A stretch of 64,000 nucleotides of DNA from contig AP019701.1 in the NCBI GenBank assembly GCA_006738865.1, positions 1,980,001 to 2,044,000 of the forward strand, read 5' to 3'. The notes under the pieces are model-generated. The model saw only the letters and a list, made by a program, of their open reading frames with translations. It searched no databases and was not told the origin of the DNA. Of the stretch, positions 1 to 5,611 are shown in pieces. Source of the DNA: Allostella sp. ATCC 35155. GTDB lineage: Bacteria; Pseudomonadota; Alphaproteobacteria; ATCC43930; Allostellaceae. Made by a program: the position numbers and the translations under genes. Numbering within the stretch: position 1 is the first letter of the stretch; every line of letters begins with the position of its first letter.

Positions 1-567
1 GCCGGCGGCGTGGTACTCGAAGATCCAGCGGGTGCGGGTGCGGTCGCCGCGCTCGGGATCGGGCCAGTCGAGGATCGACCGACCGAGGCCGCCGACATCG
101 ATCGGGCCGGGCGACAGGACGGCGACCAGCCGGCGCATCTGGCGCTGCACCTCGTCGACGGTGCGCGCCGTCATCAGGCGCCGGAAGCGCACCGGCTTCA
201 CGGCGGCCGTCTCCGGCTTGTCGTCGAAGTGCTTCCGTCCCGCGGCCCGCGCCGGATGCGTCCGCCGGCCCGCAGAATCGGCCGGGACGTCCTCCCGCAC
301 ATGCGCCAGCACCGTGGCGACGGCGGCGACCCAGGGCAGGCGGCCCGAAATCTCCCGCTCGCTGCTGCCGAGCCCGAGACTGCGATAGAGGTCGAGGACC
401 GCCGGATCGGCGAGCGCGTCGGCGACGCCGGCGCGGCGCAGCCGGGCCATGGCCGCCCGGTCGGCGTCGGGGTTGCGGCGGCCGTCCGGCAGGCGCGGCT
501 GGTGACGGCGCCACCAGCCGCGAATGATCGCGGCGGCCGACGGTCGAACGGGCTTGTCGCTGCTCAT
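1..567 (-). CDS. cse2: Type I-E Cascade small subunit Cse2/CasB (3' end cut by window edge)
   Basis: Cse2 is the helical small subunit of the type I-E Cascade complex; it lines the belly of the complex and stabilises the R-loop. The 189 visible codons read MSSDKPVRP, then a WWRRHQPRLPDGRR stretch, an arginine-rich LRRAG segment, LAHVRED near the middle and RFRRLMTA followed by WIFEYHAA near the end, the usual family landmarks. Only a few codons are probably missing at the edge. The ATG overlaps the stop of cse1 as ATGA, so the two are translationally coupled. The remaining Cascade and adaptation genes presumably lie beyond position 1. Confidence 0.87.
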   Translation of the reverse strand, partial: MSSDKPVRPSAAAIIRGWWRRHQPRLPDGRRNPDADRAAMARLRRAGVADALADPAVLDLYRSLGLGSSEREISGRLPWVAAVATVLAHVREDVPADSAGRRTHPARAAGRKHFDDKPETAAVKPVRFRRLMTARTVDEVQRQMRRLVAVLSPGPIDVGGLGRSILDWPDPERGDRTRTRWIFEYHAAG

Positions 568-2237
568 GAGGTCGCCTCCGCTTTCGCCTTGCCGCGGCCG
601 ACTTTCTTCTTCGCGCCGTCGGGCGGGGTCAGCCCCAGGCTGGCGAACATCGAGCGGCCGAGCCCGTAGCCCCGCATGGCGAAGAGGAGGCTGCGCCGGG
701 CACCGACCCGGCGGCGCGCCAGGGCCGGCCGCAAGGTCTCCAGCTCCTCCAGCGGGGCGAGCCGGTCGAAGACGGCGATGGCCGCGGCGCGCAGCGCGTC
801 CGCCCAGCGCAGGCGAGCGTCGAGGCTGGCCGTGGCGCCTCCGTCCGCGGCCTCCGCGAGATCGTGGGCAAGGCGTCGGGCCTCGTCATGGAAGCCGGCC
901 GTCGTCGTCTCCCAGAACTCGGTTCGGGCGGCTTCGGCCGGACCATCCGCCTCGCGGACGCAGCTCGCCAGCACCGCGGCGGCGTCGCGCGCGCCCAGCA
1001 CCATCTGCCGCACCGCCGCCTCGTGCAGTTCGCGCACCGGGGCGGGCGGCAGGTGCAGCGGCATCTCGCCCTCGGTGAAGTCGCGCGCCTTCATATTGTC
1101 GAAGTCGTAGCCGGCGGCGGTCAGCCGCAGCGGACCGATCGGATCGGGCAGCCAGTCGAGGCGCCGCGGCGCCTGCGCGACGGATGCGGCCGGCTCGCGA
1201 CGCGCGTTGCCGGGATCGTCCGAGATGGCGAGGCCCAGCCAGTCGCGATAGGCGATGCGCCCCGGCTGGCCGTGCACCGGCAGCCAGGAACTCGGGTCGC
1301 CCGGCTTGGCCTGGTAGTGGGGCGTCAGCGGATGGCGGAAGGCCGCATAGCTGGTGCCGTGGGGACGCGTGCGGCAGGTCCGGACGATGATCGGGTCGAC
1401 CAGCCCGGTCAGGTCGCACGGCCGGCCCTCCGGATTGGCGACGAAGTCGAGCCGGATGCGGCGCGGCATCCCCCAATAGGCCTGCAGCGGGTCGACATCC
1501 TCGGGCGTCGTCGTCTGGCCCTTGTCCGAAACCCGCGTGGCGGCGAGCCAGGGGAAGATCCACGCCGCCGACCGTTCGCGCCCGGTCGGCGCCGCCGGCC
1601 GTACGGCGTTGAGCCAGAGCGTGTGCCACAGCGCCTCCGGCCGACCCGGCCGCCGAGCAGGGCGGACCAGCGTCGTCAGCGGCCCGCCGCCGCGCAGCGA
1701 GGTGCGGACTCCGGCGCCGCCCGCGGGCGCATAGGTCTGCAGGGTGAAGAGCGCCATCGCCGCCGCCGGCCGCGACAGGCATTCGATGCCGCCGCGATGG
1801 ACGAAATGGTCCAGGTTCTTCTTCACCGTATTGCCGCCGGGCGCCTCGATGAGCAGCTGGCCGACCGGCACCGCATTGTCCGGCAGCTCTTCGCGGTCCT
1901 GGCCGAAGCGGGGGCCGTCGCCGTCGAGCCGGAACGCCTCGGCCAGCGGCGCGAAGGCGGCATCGAGGACGTCCGGCGCCGGCGGCCGCTCGTACCATTC
2001 CGCCCAGGCATCGTCCTGCATCCGCTCGCCGCAGGCGGTCGCCAGCAGCCCGATCAGAAACTCCCGCGTCGCGGCATCGAAGTCGGCCCGGCCCCAGGCG
2101 AAATCGACGACCGGGTTTCTGTCGACCTCCGCCGCGACCTCCGCCGGCCGCACCCATCGCCGCGACCCGTCGGCCAGAATGGCGGGAAGCCATGGGCCGA
2201 GCAGGGTGAGGGATACTCGGTCGGTAGGAACGGTCAT
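564..2237 (-). CDS. cse1: Type I-E Cascade large subunit Cse1/CasA (Cas8e)
   Basis: Cse1 is the PAM-recognising large subunit of type I-E Cascade, which licenses target DNA and recruits Cas3. The 557-aa length is normal for the family. Near residue 140 there is an FVHRG segment, then the SLRGGGPLTTLV signature (about 184-195), a W-rich PWLAATR stretch and a C-terminal four-helix bundle. The ATG at 2237 follows a 324-bp gap without a good protein ORF. That gap holds the predicted promoter and a crRNA-like element (separate entries). The gene overlaps cse2 by 4 bp. The C-terminal tail is lysine-rich. Confidence 0.93.
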   Translation of the reverse strand: MTVPTDRVSLTLLGPWLPAILADGSRRWVRPAEVAAEVDRNPVVDFAWGRADFDAATREFLIGLLATACGERMQDDAWAEWYERPPAPDVLDAAFAPLAEAFRLDGDGPRFGQDREELPDNAVPVGQLLIEAPGGNTVKKNLDHFVHRGGIECLSRPAAAMALFTLQTYAPAGGAGVRTSLRGGGPLTTLVRPARRPGRPEALWHTLWLNAVRPAAPTGRERSAAWIFPWLAATRVSDKGQTTTPEDVDPLQAYWGMPRRIRLDFVANPEGRPCDLTGLVDPIIVRTCRTRPHGTSYAAFRHPLTPHYQAKPGDPSSWLPVHGQPGRIAYRDWLGLAISDDPGNARREPAASVAQAPRRLDWLPDPIGPLRLTAAGYDFDNMKARDFTEGEMPLHLPPAPVRELHEAAVRQMVLGARDAAAVLASCVREADGPAEAARTEFWETTTAGFHDEARRLAHDLAEAADGGATASLDARLRWADALRAAAIAVFDRLAPLEELETLRPALARRRVGARRSLLFAMRGYGLGRSMFASLGLTPPDGAKKKVGRGKAKAEATS

Positions 2238-2276: not shown

Positions 2277-2333
2277 ATTAACCAACCTTCAGGTGGTAGA
2301 GTCAATCGTATTTTGATCGGGCGGCATAGACAA
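2277..2333 (-). promoter_or_regulatory. Predicted cse1 promoter region (two overlapping sigma70-like promoters)
   Basis: Reading the minus strand toward cse1, TTGTCT (2333-2328) and TACGAT (2310-2305) are 17 nt apart, each matching 4 of 6 consensus bases. A second pair, TTGACT (2305-2300) and GTTAAT (2282-2277), is also 17 nt apart. The first promoter's -35 box lies inside the segment matched by the crRNA-like spacer upstream. Which promoter is used cannot be told from sequence. Confidence 0.5.
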
Positions 2334-2353
2334 ACCGCAAGCGATTAGAACTT
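2319..2353 (-). promoter_or_regulatory. Protospacer-like target of the degenerate crRNA, with AAG PAM
   Basis: On the minus strand, AAG (2353-2351), the canonical type I-E PAM, is followed by TTCTAATCGCTTGCGGT (2350-2334). The first 17 nt of the spacer-like segment at 2439-2408 are TTCTGTTCGCTTGCGGT. They match at positions 1-4 and 7-17, with mismatches at 5 and 6 (6 is tolerated by Cascade) and no match after 17. The full 32-nt footprint (2350-2319) covers the -35 box of the predicted cse1 promoter. Partial matching suits binding without cleavage, that is repression (inference). Confidence 0.7.
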
Positions 2354-2378: not shown

Positions 2379-2468
2379 AGTGGGATCCCCGCGCAGGCAG
2401 GGAACAATTTTCAACCGGTTCGACCGCAAGCGAACAGAACGGTCCATCCCCCGCGCGGGGGCCGGCAA
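2379..2468 (-). ncRNA. Degenerate mini-CRISPR (repeat-like / 32-nt spacer-like / repeat-like), candidate Cas-regulating crRNA-like RNA
   Basis: Three parts are visible on the minus strand. The first repeat-like unit (2468-2440) has a CCCCC-GCGC-GGGGG hairpin followed by ATGGACCG, one base from the type I-E 5' handle ATGAACCG. Then comes a 32-nt segment (2439-2408), the standard I-E spacer length. The second repeat-like unit (2407-2379) starts TTGTTCCC, forms a CCCTGC-CTGC-GCGGGG hairpin and continues GAT. The outer halves are decayed. A TATATG box at 2479-2474 could start transcription at the first unit. The architecture and autoregulatory match resemble the CreA/CreR RNAs described for cas loci. 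Assignment is inference; no RNA data are available. Confidence 0.7.
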
Positions 2469-2555: not shown

Positions 2556-2572
2556 ATCGCATCAGATGCGAT
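2556..2572 (-). terminator. Short hairpin across the antitoxin stop codon
   Basis: ATCGCAT and ATGCGAT form a perfect 7-bp inverted repeat with a 3-nt loop that includes the antitoxin stop codon. There is no T tract, so it may be a weak terminator or an RNA-stabilising hairpin. It separates the antitoxin gene from the crRNA-like element. Confidence 0.3.
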
Positions 2573-2804
2573 CGTCGTCCCGCATGGCCCGAACCAGTTC
2601 GGCGGCGCTGCCGGACTGCGGCGGTAGGGTCGCCGTCAGTGAACGTAGCAGACCGGCATCGACCGGCCGCCGTGGCGCGACCGCCGCGGTCAGCCGCGCC
2701 ACCGGCCGGCCACGGCGGGTGATAGTGAGCGAGTCGCCCGCCTCCACCCGATCGACGAGTTCGCTCAGATGCGCCTTGGCGCTCGTCAGACTGATCGTGC
2801 TCAT
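2562..2804 (-). CDS. Phd/YefM-type antitoxin, no toxin partner visible
   Basis: An 80-aa protein with the classic N-terminal Phd/YefM DNA-binding fold: it opens MSTISLTSAKAHLSEL, followed by VDRVEAGDSLTITRRGRPVA. The family binds its own operator and neutralises a PIN, RelE or Doc toxin through its C-terminal tail. No toxin ORF lies on either side: the next 324 bp hold only regulatory and crRNA-like sequence, and upstream is cas3. The gene sits inside the cas cluster between cas3 and cse1. It may be a solitary remnant or may have been recruited as a repressor of the cas genes; the sequence does not decide. Confidence 0.8.
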   Translation of the reverse strand: MSTISLTSAKAHLSELVDRVEAGDSLTITRRGRPVARLTAAVAPRRPVDAGLLRSLTATLPPQSGSAAELVRAMRDDDRI

Positions 2805-2881
2805 GTCGCGCTCCGGACCGTCGATGTGGCCACATGGTGCAACGCGCCGCGGATTTCCGGCAAGCTGGGCGAGTCCGGCGG

Positions 2882-5611
2882 CTACCGGAACTCCAGGCCG
2901 CGTTCGCTGCTGTAGCGCACCGTGACCGTGCGGTTCTCGCCAGCGATCCCCTCGCCGGCCAGGCCCTCGGCATCCTCGCGCAGTGCCACCAGGATCGTGT
3001 CCTGCTCATACCGACCCCAACCGGCCTTGGCCTGGGCGATTGCGGCGGCGAGCGGGCCCGCGGCGGCCGCTTGCCCGCTTATCCGGCCGGCACGCACCGA
3101 CACCTCCGACATTGCCCAGGCGCGGCGGGGGTCGGGATCGGGGCAGAGCGGCAGCACGGTTGCCCCGTCCCAGCGGGCGAGCCGCAGCGTGCGGCGATCG
3201 TCGGCGAGGCGGGTGGAGACGCGGGCCTCGTCCGGCCAGGGCTGGCCGGCGCGGACATAGCCGGCATCGAGATCGAGCAGGTTGTTGGTGGCGTGGCTAC
3301 GATCGGCCATGCGTTCGCCCTGCGCCGCCTGATGGATGCGCTCCAGCCCGGCCGGCACCGCTGCCCCGGATTGTTCGCCATAGACCTGCTCGATGAGGTC
3401 GGGAACGTCGCCCGGTACTGCGATCCCGCCGGTGCGGAAGGCGTGGCGCGCGGTGAGCCAGAGGATGCCGTGGTCACCGTAGACGAAGGCGGTGCCGGGC
3501 AGGGCGGCGCGGATCCAGTCCGCCGGGACCGTGTCGGCCGGATCCGGCGCGACGACGAGGAGGCGCGGTCCCGGCACCGGCCGGTCCGCCGCCGGCCGTC
3601 GGTCGAGATGGCGCCACACCCGTCCCGCGCGCTGCAGCAGCAGGTCGATCGGCGCGAGGTCACTTACCATGAGGTCGAAATCGAGATCGAGCGACTGCTC
3701 CACCACCTGCGTCGCCACCAGCACCCGGCCGCGCCGCGTCGCCGCTGCACCCTCGCGCCCGAACCGGTCGAGCACGGCGTTCTCGATCGCCAGCCGATGG
3801 CCCATGGCAAAGCGCGCATGGAAGAGGTCGGTGACGAGGCCGGCGGCGCGCAGGCGGTCGGCTGCCGCAATCGCGTCATCGACGGTGTTGCGCACCCAGG
3901 CGACCGCCGCTCCGGCGCGGGCGGCTGCCGTGATCGCCGTCACCGCCGCGTCGGCATCCGCGAGCCGCGTGACCCCGAGACGGCGCGGCAGGTCGGGCCG
4001 CGGCATGACCGGTTCTTCCAGCACGGGCCCGGTTGCCGAGAGGCGGGTTGCGCCGGGATAGGCGCGGCCGAGCCTGGGCGGCTCCGGTGCGCCCGCTGCC
4101 GCGGACCACGCGCGGGCGATCCGTTCCTTGGTGGGGCGCGGCAGGGTCGCGGAGAGGACGATCGCATGCCCACCCTGCATGGCATGGGCCGCCAGCAGAC
4201 GGTCGATCTCCGCCCCCATATAGGCGTCGTAGGCATGGGCCTCGTCGATCACCAGGACGCGGTCGGCGAGCGCCGCCAGGCGGATCGCCTGGTGCTTGGC
4301 GGGCAGCACCGCCAGCAGCGCCTGGTCGATCGTTCCGACGCCGATATCGGCCAGGAACGCCTTGCGTCGGTCATGGGCGAGCCAGGCCGCGCATTCGGCG
4401 GCGCAGTCGCCCTCCGCCCCGTCGTGCGACCGGGCCGGGCGCTGTCCGGGCGCCGGTTCGACGATGCTCTGCCGGAAGCCGTCGTCGAGTGCCGCACGGC
4501 CATGGGCGAGGACGAGAGACGGATCGGCCCCGGCCGCGAACATGCGGCGATGGGCGACGGCGAGCCGGCGGTACATGGCGTTGGCGGTCGCCATCGTCGG
4601 CAGCGCGAGGTAGAGGCCGTGCGCACGCCCGGCGGCCATCAGCCGATGGGTGATGGCGAGTGCCGCCTCGGTCTTGCCGCCGCCCGTCATGTCCTCCAGG
4701 AGGAAGAGGAGCGGTCCCTTCTCCGGCAGCGCGACGGTCTCGGCCCAGGCCTGCAGCGGGCTCGGCACCAGGGCCGGCCGGCCGAGGAGGGCCGCAAGGC
4801 CGGCATAGGGCGCGGGCGGCGCGGGCAGCACGCCGGCTGCCCGCACGGCAGCCTCGGCCCGCGGCAGGGCAACCTCGCTCCAGTAGGTCGCGAGCGGCGT
4901 TCCCACGTCGGTCGCATAGGGGAACCAGCGCTGGTTCGACCCGATCCAGTCGGCAGCGACCGACAGGCCGGCCAGCCGCCAGCTCACGCGGCGCAGTGCG
5001 ACGATGTCGGGCGGCGCAGGACGGGGTGCGGCCAGCAGCTCCAGGACCGACGCCGCGAATGCCCGTGCCGCGCTCTCGCCGGCCGTGCCGAAGGTGAGCG
5101 CCGTCTGCTCGTGCGGCTCGACCGGACGGCCGTGGTGCGCGAGCACCGGCTGGAAGAAGGCGTCGATGTGGGGGCGCCGCCAGCCCGGCAGCGCCGCCCC
5201 CAGCAAGGGTGGCAGCGATCGGCGCAGCAGGCCCATTCCGGTCGCCGGGTGGCCCGGGTCCGCCTGCCGCAGCATCGCCACGTCGAGCGGGCCGAGCGCG
5301 CCAGCCGGCCAATGGTCGGGGGCCTTGGCCTGGAACACGCGGGCGAACTTGCCGAGATCGTGCAGCGCCAGCGCCAGCGTCCACAGTCCGACCAGCTCGT
5401 CGTCCCTCCAGCCGAGTGCCCTCGCCATCGCGCGGAAGGGAGAGGGATGGTGCATGGCCAGCGTCCGGCCGACGGCGGCGACGTCGAGGCTGTGCATCCA
5501 CAGCGGATGCCATGCGCCGGCCGTGTCGTCGGCCGGTTGAGCCTTGCCCCAGAAGGCACGGAAGCCGGACGTGGTATCCATAGCTGGCGGCGCTCCATTG
5601 CCCTCGGCCAT
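2882..5611 (-). CDS. cas3: CRISPR-associated helicase/nuclease Cas3 (type I-E)
   Basis: Cas3 nicks, unwinds and degrades the DNA strand displaced by Cascade. The 909-aa protein has an N-terminal HD nuclease domain (His40, His84-Asp85 in LALHDLGKF, His159-His160), then a superfamily 2 helicase: Walker A GGGKTE near 310-315, DEAH at 456-459, LSATLPRPTKERI, and QRAGR motif VI near 690 preceded by ATQVVEQSLDLDFDL. All catalytic residues are present, so it should be active. The start at 5611 is preceded by no strong ribosome site; Met11 is an alternative. It is the first gene of the minus-strand cluster, 77 bp before the antitoxin. Confidence 0.95.
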   Translation of the reverse strand: MAEGNGAPPAMDTTSGFRAFWGKAQPADDTAGAWHPLWMHSLDVAAVGRTLAMHHPSPFRAMARALGWRDDELVGLWTLALALHDLGKFARVFQAKAPDHWPAGALGPLDVAMLRQADPGHPATGMGLLRRSLPPLLGAALPGWRRPHIDAFFQPVLAHHGRPVEPHEQTALTFGTAGESAARAFAASVLELLAAPRPAPPDIVALRRVSWRLAGLSVAADWIGSNQRWFPYATDVGTPLATYWSEVALPRAEAAVRAAGVLPAPPAPYAGLAALLGRPALVPSPLQAWAETVALPEKGPLLFLLEDMTGGGKTEAALAITHRLMAAGRAHGLYLALPTMATANAMYRRLAVAHRRMFAAGADPSLVLAHGRAALDDGFRQSIVEPAPGQRPARSHDGAEGDCAAECAAWLAHDRRKAFLADIGVGTIDQALLAVLPAKHQAIRLAALADRVLVIDEAHAYDAYMGAEIDRLLAAHAMQGGHAIVLSATLPRPTKERIARAWSAAAGAPEPPRLGRAYPGATRLSATGPVLEEPVMPRPDLPRRLGVTRLADADAAVTAITAAARAGAAVAWVRNTVDDAIAAADRLRAAGLVTDLFHARFAMGHRLAIENAVLDRFGREGAAATRRGRVLVATQVVEQSLDLDFDLMVSDLAPIDLLLQRAGRVWRHLDRRPAADRPVPGPRLLVVAPDPADTVPADWIRAALPGTAFVYGDHGILWLTARHAFRTGGIAVPGDVPDLIEQVYGEQSGAAVPAGLERIHQAAQGERMADRSHATNNLLDLDAGYVRAGQPWPDEARVSTRLADDRRTLRLARWDGATVLPLCPDPDPRRAWAMSEVSVRAGRISGQAAAAGPLAAAIAQAKAGWGRYEQDTILVALREDAEGLAGEGIAGENRTVTVRYSSERGLEFR

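What the first reader, a model, noticed from the sequence alone, without database searches (positions are those of the whole stretch)
2379..2468. Degenerate mini-CRISPR between antitoxin and cse1: candidate Cas-regulating crRNA-like RNA
Two imperfect type I-E repeat-like hairpins on the cas-coding strand bracket a segment of exactly 32 nt, the standard I-E spacer length. The first unit keeps the 3' handle (ATGGACCG against ATGAACCG) and a GC stem that Cas6e could cut; the second keeps a six-pair stem with one G-U. No ordinary array is visible in the window. This is the architecture described for CreA and CreR RNAs, which direct Cascade to host promoters. A TATATG box sits just upstream of the first unit. 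Its exact family cannot be assigned here, so this type I-E version may be new.
Basis: partly seen in the sequence, partly recalled or inferred. Interest (0 to 1): 0.92.

Follow-up and report, generated by a model that had tools for sequence, protein, structure and literature searches.

The report
Self-repressing guide RNA for CRISPR genes
Next to its CRISPR defence genes this star-shaped bacterium carries a worn-down one-spacer CRISPR whose guide matches the DNA just in front of those same genes, so the defence machinery very probably turns its own production down; this kind of self-control has been reported before in other bacteria.

Summary
Minus-strand 2468-2379 holds two degenerate I-E repeats around a 32-nt guide (2439-2408). 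The host's true array lies 4 kb outside the window; psiR2 keeps 18/21 of the repeat's first 21 nt, psiR1 7/8 of its handle. Positions 6 and 12 apart, it is the genome's only other site with at most one mismatch. None of the host's 23 array spacers matches there as well. Of 62 cse1 loci, 18 (window included) show an AAG-flanked guide/target pair upstream of cse1, with positions 6 and 12 unconstrained, as Cascade pairing predicts. Best explanation: a type I-E CreR that makes Cascade repress the cse1-led operon. Type I-E CreRs are already reported (PMC13131331), so this is a new member of a known kind. In 14 of those 18 loci an SD-led small ORF lies between target and cse1 (possible toxin, CreTA-like); the window has none. 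Expression, processing and repression are untested.

The parts
2440..2468 (-). psiR1, degenerate I-E repeat; 5-bp GC stem with 4-nt loop, then the 8-nt handle ATGGACCG at 2447-2440 (host ATGAACCG)
   Evidence: 17/29 of the host repeat; last 8 nt 7/8, first 21 nt 10/21; fold
2408..2439 (-). guide (spacer-like psiS), exactly 32 nt; positions 1-17 are the matching part
   Evidence: all 23 spacers taken from the host array are 32 nt too
2379..2407 (-). psiR2, degenerate I-E repeat keeping the stem (7 pairs folded, one G-U), handle lost
   Evidence: 21/29 of the host repeat; first 21 nt 18/21, last 8 nt 3/8; fold -11.7 kcal/mol, z -2.28
2351..2353 (-). AAG PAM of the target, directly 5' of the protospacer
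2319..2350 (-). target (protospacer) upstream of cse1; seed part 2350-2334 matches the guide 15/17 (mismatches at 5 and 6), the rest 1/15
2305..2333 (-). possible cse1 promoter TTGTCT (2333-2328), 17 nt, TACGAT (2310-2305), its -35 inside the protospacer
   Evidence: read by eye, 8 of 12 consensus bases; below the threshold of the promoter scan, which found none: weak
564..2237 (-). cse1 (casA/cas8e), first gene of the operon that would be repressed
   Evidence: PF09481 E 2.1e-95; PADLOC Cas8e
1..567 (-). cse2 (runs out of the window); cas7, cas5, cas6e and cas1 follow outside the window in L002
   Evidence: PF09485; PF09344 (Cas7), PF09704 (Cas5), PF08798 (Cas6e), PF01867 (Cas1, part of the domain)
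2882..5611 (-). cas3, upstream of the mini-CRISPR; none of the listed best guide matches lies near its start
   Evidence: PF18019, PF22590; guide scan, best eight per strand listed
2562..2804 (-). Phd/YefM antitoxin gene between cas3 and the mini-CRISPR; taken as a bystander
   Evidence: PF02604; only match in the genome; no room for it between cas3 and the mini-CRISPR in Stella vacuolata

Best explanation
It is a type I-E creR gene. A transcript of the minus strand through 2468-2379 is cut by Cas6e at the two repeat-like hairpins, giving a crRNA-like RNA with handle AUGGACCG, a 32-nt guide and the psiR2 stem. Cascade loaded with it finds AAG at 2353-2351 and pairs with the first ~17 nt of the protospacer (2350-2334). 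Pairing stops there, so there is binding without destruction of the target, and the bound complex blocks transcription into cse1 (start 2237) and the Cascade genes behind it. More Cascade gives more repression; array crRNAs or anti-CRISPRs that take Cascade away relieve it. Shown here: the anatomy, the relation to the host repeat, the guide/target/PAM match, its uniqueness in the genome, and the same arrangement with different guides in relatives. Inferred: expression, Cas6e processing, Cascade loading, the position of the promoter, repression, lack of cleavage, and relief by competition.
For: The guide is fixed by the repeat boundaries; its best match on both strands of the window, itself apart, is the site before cse1, with AAG. 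0 of 20,000 dinucleotide shuffles of the 144-nt intergenic stretch, both strands, reach its score (14 of 15, positions 6 and 12 ignored) with any PAM (best 13); with AAG the best was 11. It is the only site in the genome with at most one mismatch of 15, the guide apart. The host's 23 array spacers reach at most 10 of 15 (any PAM) and 9 (AAG) in 2500-2238; the creR guide reaches 14. Match 15/17 up to position 17, then 1/15, Fisher p 7e-6 (the cut at 17 is the length I scanned with). The repeat parts kept are those needed (handle in psiR1, stem in psiR2), as described for haloarchaeal CreA (PMC9458426 section 13). In 62 loci: 32 filtered hits upstream of cse1, 19 with AAG in 18 loci, AAG base rate 1.6%; tiles of the rest of the same loci (1.03 Mb): 106 hits, 4 with AAG. 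The four co-directional guides score 12-15 of 15 on their own targets and 1-10 on each other's. In leave-one-out detection positions 6 and 12 match in 7 of 19 loci each, positions 1-5 in 94-95%, 7-11 in 79-94%, 13-17 in 52-85%.
Against: No RNA or reporter data. No promoter passes the scan for creR or cse1. psiR1's hairpin is no better than shuffles and the whole RNA prefers psiR1-psiR2 pairing in silico. A first, cruder control that left CRISPR arrays in gave the window p = 0.006, L006 0.013, L008 0.020, L007 0 of 1175. 14 of the 18 guide/target loci have an SD-led small ORF between target and cse1, so by kinship the module could be or have been a CreTA. 44 of the 62 loci show no such pair at the settings used. 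That AAG is this host's PAM is taken from knowledge of type I-E, not measured in this species.
Confidence: 0.82

Rival explanations
1. It is the CreA half of a CreTA module: the target is the promoter of a small toxin (RNA or peptide) that is set free when Cascade fails, as shown in the cas3-casA gap of Citrobacter rodentium.
For: Same place in a type I-E locus (PMC12055562 section 13). 14 of 18 guide/target loci have an SD-led ORF of at least 20 aa between target and cse1 against 2.9 expected from shuffles, among them S. vacuolata of the same genus (46 aa, shuffle P 0.07).
Against: In the window only 81 nt separate target and cse1, the shortest of the 18, and no SD-led ORF was found there. 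The short frames that do start there are a 12-codon ATG frame beginning inside the protospacer and TTG frames of 12-23 codons; none has an SD at a usual distance (by eye).
Confidence: 0.09
2. A relic: a former CreTA or CreR that has lost its toxin or its transcription and is decaying.
For: psiR1 is only 17/29 like the repeat; an antitoxin gene now sits between cas3 and psiR1, absent there in S. vacuolata; no promoter found.
Against: The parts needed for function (handle 7/8, stem with a G-U, PAM, 14 of 15 scored seed bases) are kept while the dispensable parts differ; neutral decay would spread mismatches evenly.
Confidence: 0.07
3. Chance similarity, or an ordinary remnant of a CRISPR array with an unrelated spacer.
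For: The locus is GC-rich and I-E repeats are short palindromes; crude unfiltered control p = 0.006; full-length repeat score nearly equalled once in the window.
Against: Shuffles, genome-wide uniqueness, array spacers as controls, AAG enrichment and different guide/target pairs in relatives.
Confidence: 0.01

Closest known systems
CreR (cas-regulating RNA) of type I-B, I-E and V-A systems
   Same: crRNA-like RNA from a mini-CRISPR, partial complementarity to the cas promoter, generally no toxin; type I-E named (PMC13131331 passage; PMC12737573 passages; PMC12948488 passage)
   Different: The primary paper (Liu et al. 2023, Cell Host Microbe, doi 10.1016/j.chom.2023.08.005) is not held and was not read, so orientation, spacing and species of the published I-E cases could not be compared. 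Here creR is co-directional with cse1, its guide starting 89 bp upstream of its target.
CreTA of Citrobacter rodentium type I-E (PMC12055562, section 13 read)
   Same: same cas3-casA interval, repeat-like and spacer-like parts, partial match to a PAM-flanked target near a promoter
   Different: there CreA lies on the strand opposite to the toxin ORF, the PAM is ATG, and a translated 96-bp toxin follows; in the window the strand is that of cse1, the PAM AAG, and no SD-led ORF follows the target
Haloarchaeal CreTA (H. hispanica, H. hubeiense; PMC8501985 passages, PMC9458426 passages and section 13)
   Same: two diverged repeats, psiR1 keeps the handle and psiR2 loses it, guide positions 6 and 12 free
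   Different: type I-B, PAM TTC, target is the promoter of a toxin RNA, not of cas genes
Type I-E CRISPR array of the same genome
   Same: 29-nt repeat, 32-nt spacer, same strand
   Different: 23 near-identical repeats against two degenerate ones; its 23 spacers do not match the region before cse1 (best 10 of 15)

Membership tests
CreR (cas-regulating RNA) | mini-CRISPR with degenerate repeats at a cas locus of the matching type | tested here: met
CreR (cas-regulating RNA) | partial, PAM-flanked, seed-side match upstream of the cognate cas operon | tested here: met
   AAG, 15/17 then 1/15, ending 81 nt before cse1
CreR (cas-regulating RNA) | the matched site lies in the promoter of that operon | tested here: inconclusive
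   weak promoter by eye overlaps the site; the scan found none
CreR (cas-regulating RNA) | no toxin gene under the target | tested here: met
   no SD-led ORF in the 81-nt gap; a toxin RNA without an SD is not excluded
CreR (cas-regulating RNA) | expressed, processed by Cas6, represses cas transcription together with Cascade | not testable with these tools
   needs RNA and reporter work
CreTA (CreA antitoxin RNA plus CreT toxin) | guide RNA matching a PAM-flanked site in part | tested here: met
CreTA (CreA antitoxin RNA plus CreT toxin) | toxin gene directly downstream of the target | tested here: not met
   for SD-led ORFs
Functional (adaptive) CRISPR array | two or more near-identical repeats | tested here: not met
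   psiR1 and psiR2 13/29 identical

The most novel reading that the evidence does not exclude
In the genus Stella the same Cascade-guided module has switched jobs: S. vacuolata keeps a guide, a target and a possible small toxin in front of cse1 (CreTA-like), whereas in the window's species there is no toxin segment and the guide acts on the cse1 promoter itself (CreR). Guide and target have both been replaced between the two species. That would show CreTA and CreR to be interconvertible states of one module, with the change traceable within a genus.
Probability: 0.3. Interest if true: 0.6.

Novelty: new member of a known kind. Interest (0 to 1): 0.45.

Why it matters
It gives a concrete, testable case of a CRISPR effector regulating its own genes in an alphaproteobacterium, with guide, PAM and target all named. 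The survey adds that AAG-flanked guide/target pairs stand in front of cse1 in 18 of the 62 type I-E loci examined, 14 of them with a possible toxin ORF, so how toxin-guarding and self-repressing modules are related can be approached directly.

Tried and rejected
Chance: rejected by shuffles, genome uniqueness, array spacers and relatives. CreA with a toxin in the window: SD-led ORFs sought, none found; the frames without SD are listed. Antitoxin gene as part of the module: its only copy, and not at this place in S. vacuolata; treated as a bystander; the DNA beside it was not searched for a toxin remnant beyond the ORF list. Guide aimed at cas3: none of the eight best matches per strand lies near its start.

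Controls that were changed: the first control left CRISPR arrays and other mini-CRISPRs in the null (1175 tiles) and gave window p 0.006, L006 0.013, L008 0.020, L007 0; one search showed that many of the high null scores were array repeats or further mini-CRISPRs on the other strand; searches then dropped hits whose target looks like a repeat (33 and 32 hits left, 19 with AAG in both). The comparison of positions 6 and 12 with the others is biased because the detector did not score them; the leave-one-out run is relied on. It used 12 of 16 for positions 6 and 12 and 11 of 14 for the rest, found 18-21 loci depending on the position, and had no repeat filter.

Limits of the survey: the 61 relatives are what one protein-pattern scan returned. 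Except for the window and L006, 'cse1 start' is the start of the tblastn match, so the gap lengths are approximate. Some contigs end less than 900 nt upstream. In one search the gap of L008 was started 11 nt earlier than so as to include the SD. Six further loci (L005, L067-L070, L072) were scanned with looser settings (handle at least 5/8, score at least 11 of 15, AAG only): L072 gave a plausible pair, L068 only array repeats, four nothing. L071 was left out because its contig ends near the match; L003 repeats the window and L004 repeats L006. Small ORFs of six relatives matched no Pfam family at E up to 1. The host's PAM was not tested with its own spacers. cas2 was not identified (the one ORF tried had no family). 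The primary CreR paper could not be read: searches listed only works that cite it or use the words and a look-up by DOI found it not held; what I know of its abstract is recalled.

Full report
WHAT WAS CHECKED. The window is G000:C1:1980001-2044000 of a 5,339,096-bp single-contig genome. No tool named the species. cse1 relatives are rare nearby: 3 of 43 genomes of the order and 7 of 385 sampled from the class, the window's own included.

THE LOCUS. On the minus strand the order is cas3 (5611-2882), a Phd/YefM antitoxin gene (2804-2562), the reported feature (2468-2379), cse1 (2237-564), cse2 (567 to the window edge). Outside the window, in L002, come Cas7, Cas5, Cas6e and Cas1 (cas2 not identified) and then a true I-E array: 22 exact copies of GTGTTCCCCGCCCGCGCGGGGATGAACCG and one with a single mismatch at C1:1974629-1975999, on the same strand, with 32-nt spacers. 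A second set of repeats, differing by one loop base, lies at C1:4426497-4430878.

psiR1 (2468-2440) and psiR2 (2407-2379) bracket exactly 32 nt. psiR2 matches the host repeat 21/29 (first 21 nt 18, last 8 nt 3); psiR1 17/29 (first 21 nt 10, last 8 nt 7); the two are 13/29 alike. psiR1 has thus kept the handle and psiR2 the stem. The same split is described for haloarchaeal CreA: psiR1 keeps the Cas5-binding handle, psiR2 degenerates there, psiR1 is the more diverged (PMC9458426, section 13). As single units they are not all distinctive: over 29 nt another place in the window scores 20, and psiR1's last 13 nt are equalled at five other places. As a pair they are: a handle of at least 6/8 followed 61 nt on by a repeat start scores 7 and 18/21 here, the next best of 493 places 6 and 14/21. 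Folding is mixed evidence: psiR2 alone z -2.28, host repeat z -2.73, psiR1 alone z -0.37, and the 90-nt RNA prefers to pair psiR1 with psiR2.

THE TARGET. The finding names none. The guide TTCTGTTCGCTTGCGGT... matches minus 2350-2334 (TTCTAATCGCTTGCGGT) 15/17 with AAG immediately upstream; beyond position 17 the match is 1/15. In 20,000 dinucleotide shuffles of the 144-nt intergenic stretch, both strands, none reached 14 of 15 (positions 6 and 12 ignored) with any PAM, and none passed 11 with AAG. In the whole genome, with up to 2 mismatches of 15, there are 23 sites (18 for the reversed control pattern): the guide itself with none, the target with one, 21 others with two. The 23 spacers of the host array, put to the same test on 2500-2238, reach at most 10 (any PAM) and 9 (AAG), the creR guide 14. 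The protospacer ends 81 nt before the cse1 ATG. By eye a weak promoter, TTGTCT-17-TACGAT (2333-2305), overlaps it; the scan, which asks for 9 of 12, found none in 2200-2900.

RELATIVES. The search for related loci gave 61 loci with cse1 relatives. I scanned up to 900 nt upstream of cse1, both strands, in those and the window, for a handle (at least 6/8 of ATGAACCG) followed by a guide with at least 12 of 15 matches (17 nt, positions 6 and 12 ignored) to a site within 400 nt, PAM free. After dropping hits with repeat-like targets there were 32, of which 19 had AAG, in 18 of 62 loci; the other 13 were spread over trinucleotides with at most two each; AAG base rate 1.6%, binomial p 2e-26. Tiles of the remaining DNA of the same loci (1.03 Mb) gave 106 hits, 4 with AAG. 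The loci are partly related (eight of the 18 are Gilliamella, two of these with the same guide), so the p-value overstates the independent evidence. Four are co-directional with cse1 (window, S. vacuolata, Methylobacterium platani, a Rhodovibrionaceae MAG); fourteen, in gamma- and betaproteobacteria, are divergent, with the target between the mini-CRISPR and cse1. The four co-directional guides fit their own targets (12-15 of 15) and not each other's (1-10). In leave-one-out detection, positions 6 and 12 match in 7 of 19 loci each, positions 1-5 in 94-95%, 7-11 in 79-94%, 13-17 in 52-85%: the mark of Cascade, which leaves every sixth base unpaired (established knowledge; stated for positions 6 and 12 of CreA in PMC8501985, passage). 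In M. platani the pair is the last repeat-spacer unit before cse1 of what looks like a longer array, with the target in the flank of its final degenerate repeat, an apparent intermediate.

CreR OR CreA. In Citrobacter rodentium the cas3-casA interval holds a CreA on the opposite strand, a target with ATG PAM and a translated 96-bp toxin that Cascade represses (PMC12055562, section 13). In my set, 14 of 18 loci have an SD-led ORF of at least 20 aa between target and cse1, against 2.9 expected from shuffles, so many may be CreTA. The window is one of four without (with L025, L030, L063) and has the shortest gap, 81 nt. Hence CreR is the better reading for the window. S. vacuolata has a 290-nt gap with a 46-aa GTG frame behind AAAGGAGG (shuffle P 0.07), which suggests that loss or gain of a toxin may have turned one into the other; this is the novel case and is not proven.

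MECHANISM. See Best explanation. Shown: anatomy, match, PAM, uniqueness, recurrence with replaced guides. Inferred: transcription, Cas6e cutting, Cascade loading, repression, absence of cleavage, and relief by crRNA competition or anti-CRISPRs (the last as described for CreR in PMC12737573, passages).

NOVELTY. [quoted passage not shown] The primary paper is not held. So: a new member of a known kind. I do not claim that the co-directional layout or its presence in Stella is unpublished: the only search made for Stella listed six of 21 papers, none with CRISPR in the title.

Noticed in passing
L006 4787-4927 (+): Stella vacuolata: SD-led 46-aa GTG frame between its own guide's target and cse1, a possible CreT-like toxin; shuffle P 0.07.
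   Followed up: partly
L007 4454-4573 (+): Methylobacterium platani: the last repeat-spacer unit before cse1 of what looks like a longer I-E array serves as the guide unit; its final repeat is degenerate and its flank supplies AAG and a 16/17 target, an apparent array-to-regulator intermediate.
   Followed up: partly
L017, L018, L023, L031, L043, L045 about 4747-4930 (+): Six of the eight Gilliamella loci with a divergent mini-CRISPR and AAG target have a 52-58-aa SD-led ORF before cse1, alike by eye; candidate translated CreT toxins; the one tested (L031) has no Pfam family.
   Followed up: partly
L034 4857, L036 4857, L027 4843 (+): Mixta, Erwinia and Pluralibacter carry 25-26-aa hydrophobic SD-led peptides between target and cse1, alike by eye; shuffle P 0.14-0.31, so not significant one by one; no Pfam family in the two tested.
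   Followed up: partly
window 2562-2804 (-): Phd/YefM antitoxin gene between cas3 and the mini-CRISPR, the only match in the genome, not at this place in S. vacuolata; no partner toxin gene recognised.
   Followed up: partly
L112 936-5378 (G000:C1:4426436-4430878): Second set of I-E repeats (one loop base different) far from the cas genes, split by a 3.6-kb segment holding what looks by eye like a transposase (2690-3649).
   Followed up: partly
L072 upstream of cse1: Another alphaproteobacterial candidate: handle ATGAACCA, guide and AAG target both starting GCTTGAGAAAA, 12 of 15, co-directional.
   Followed up: no
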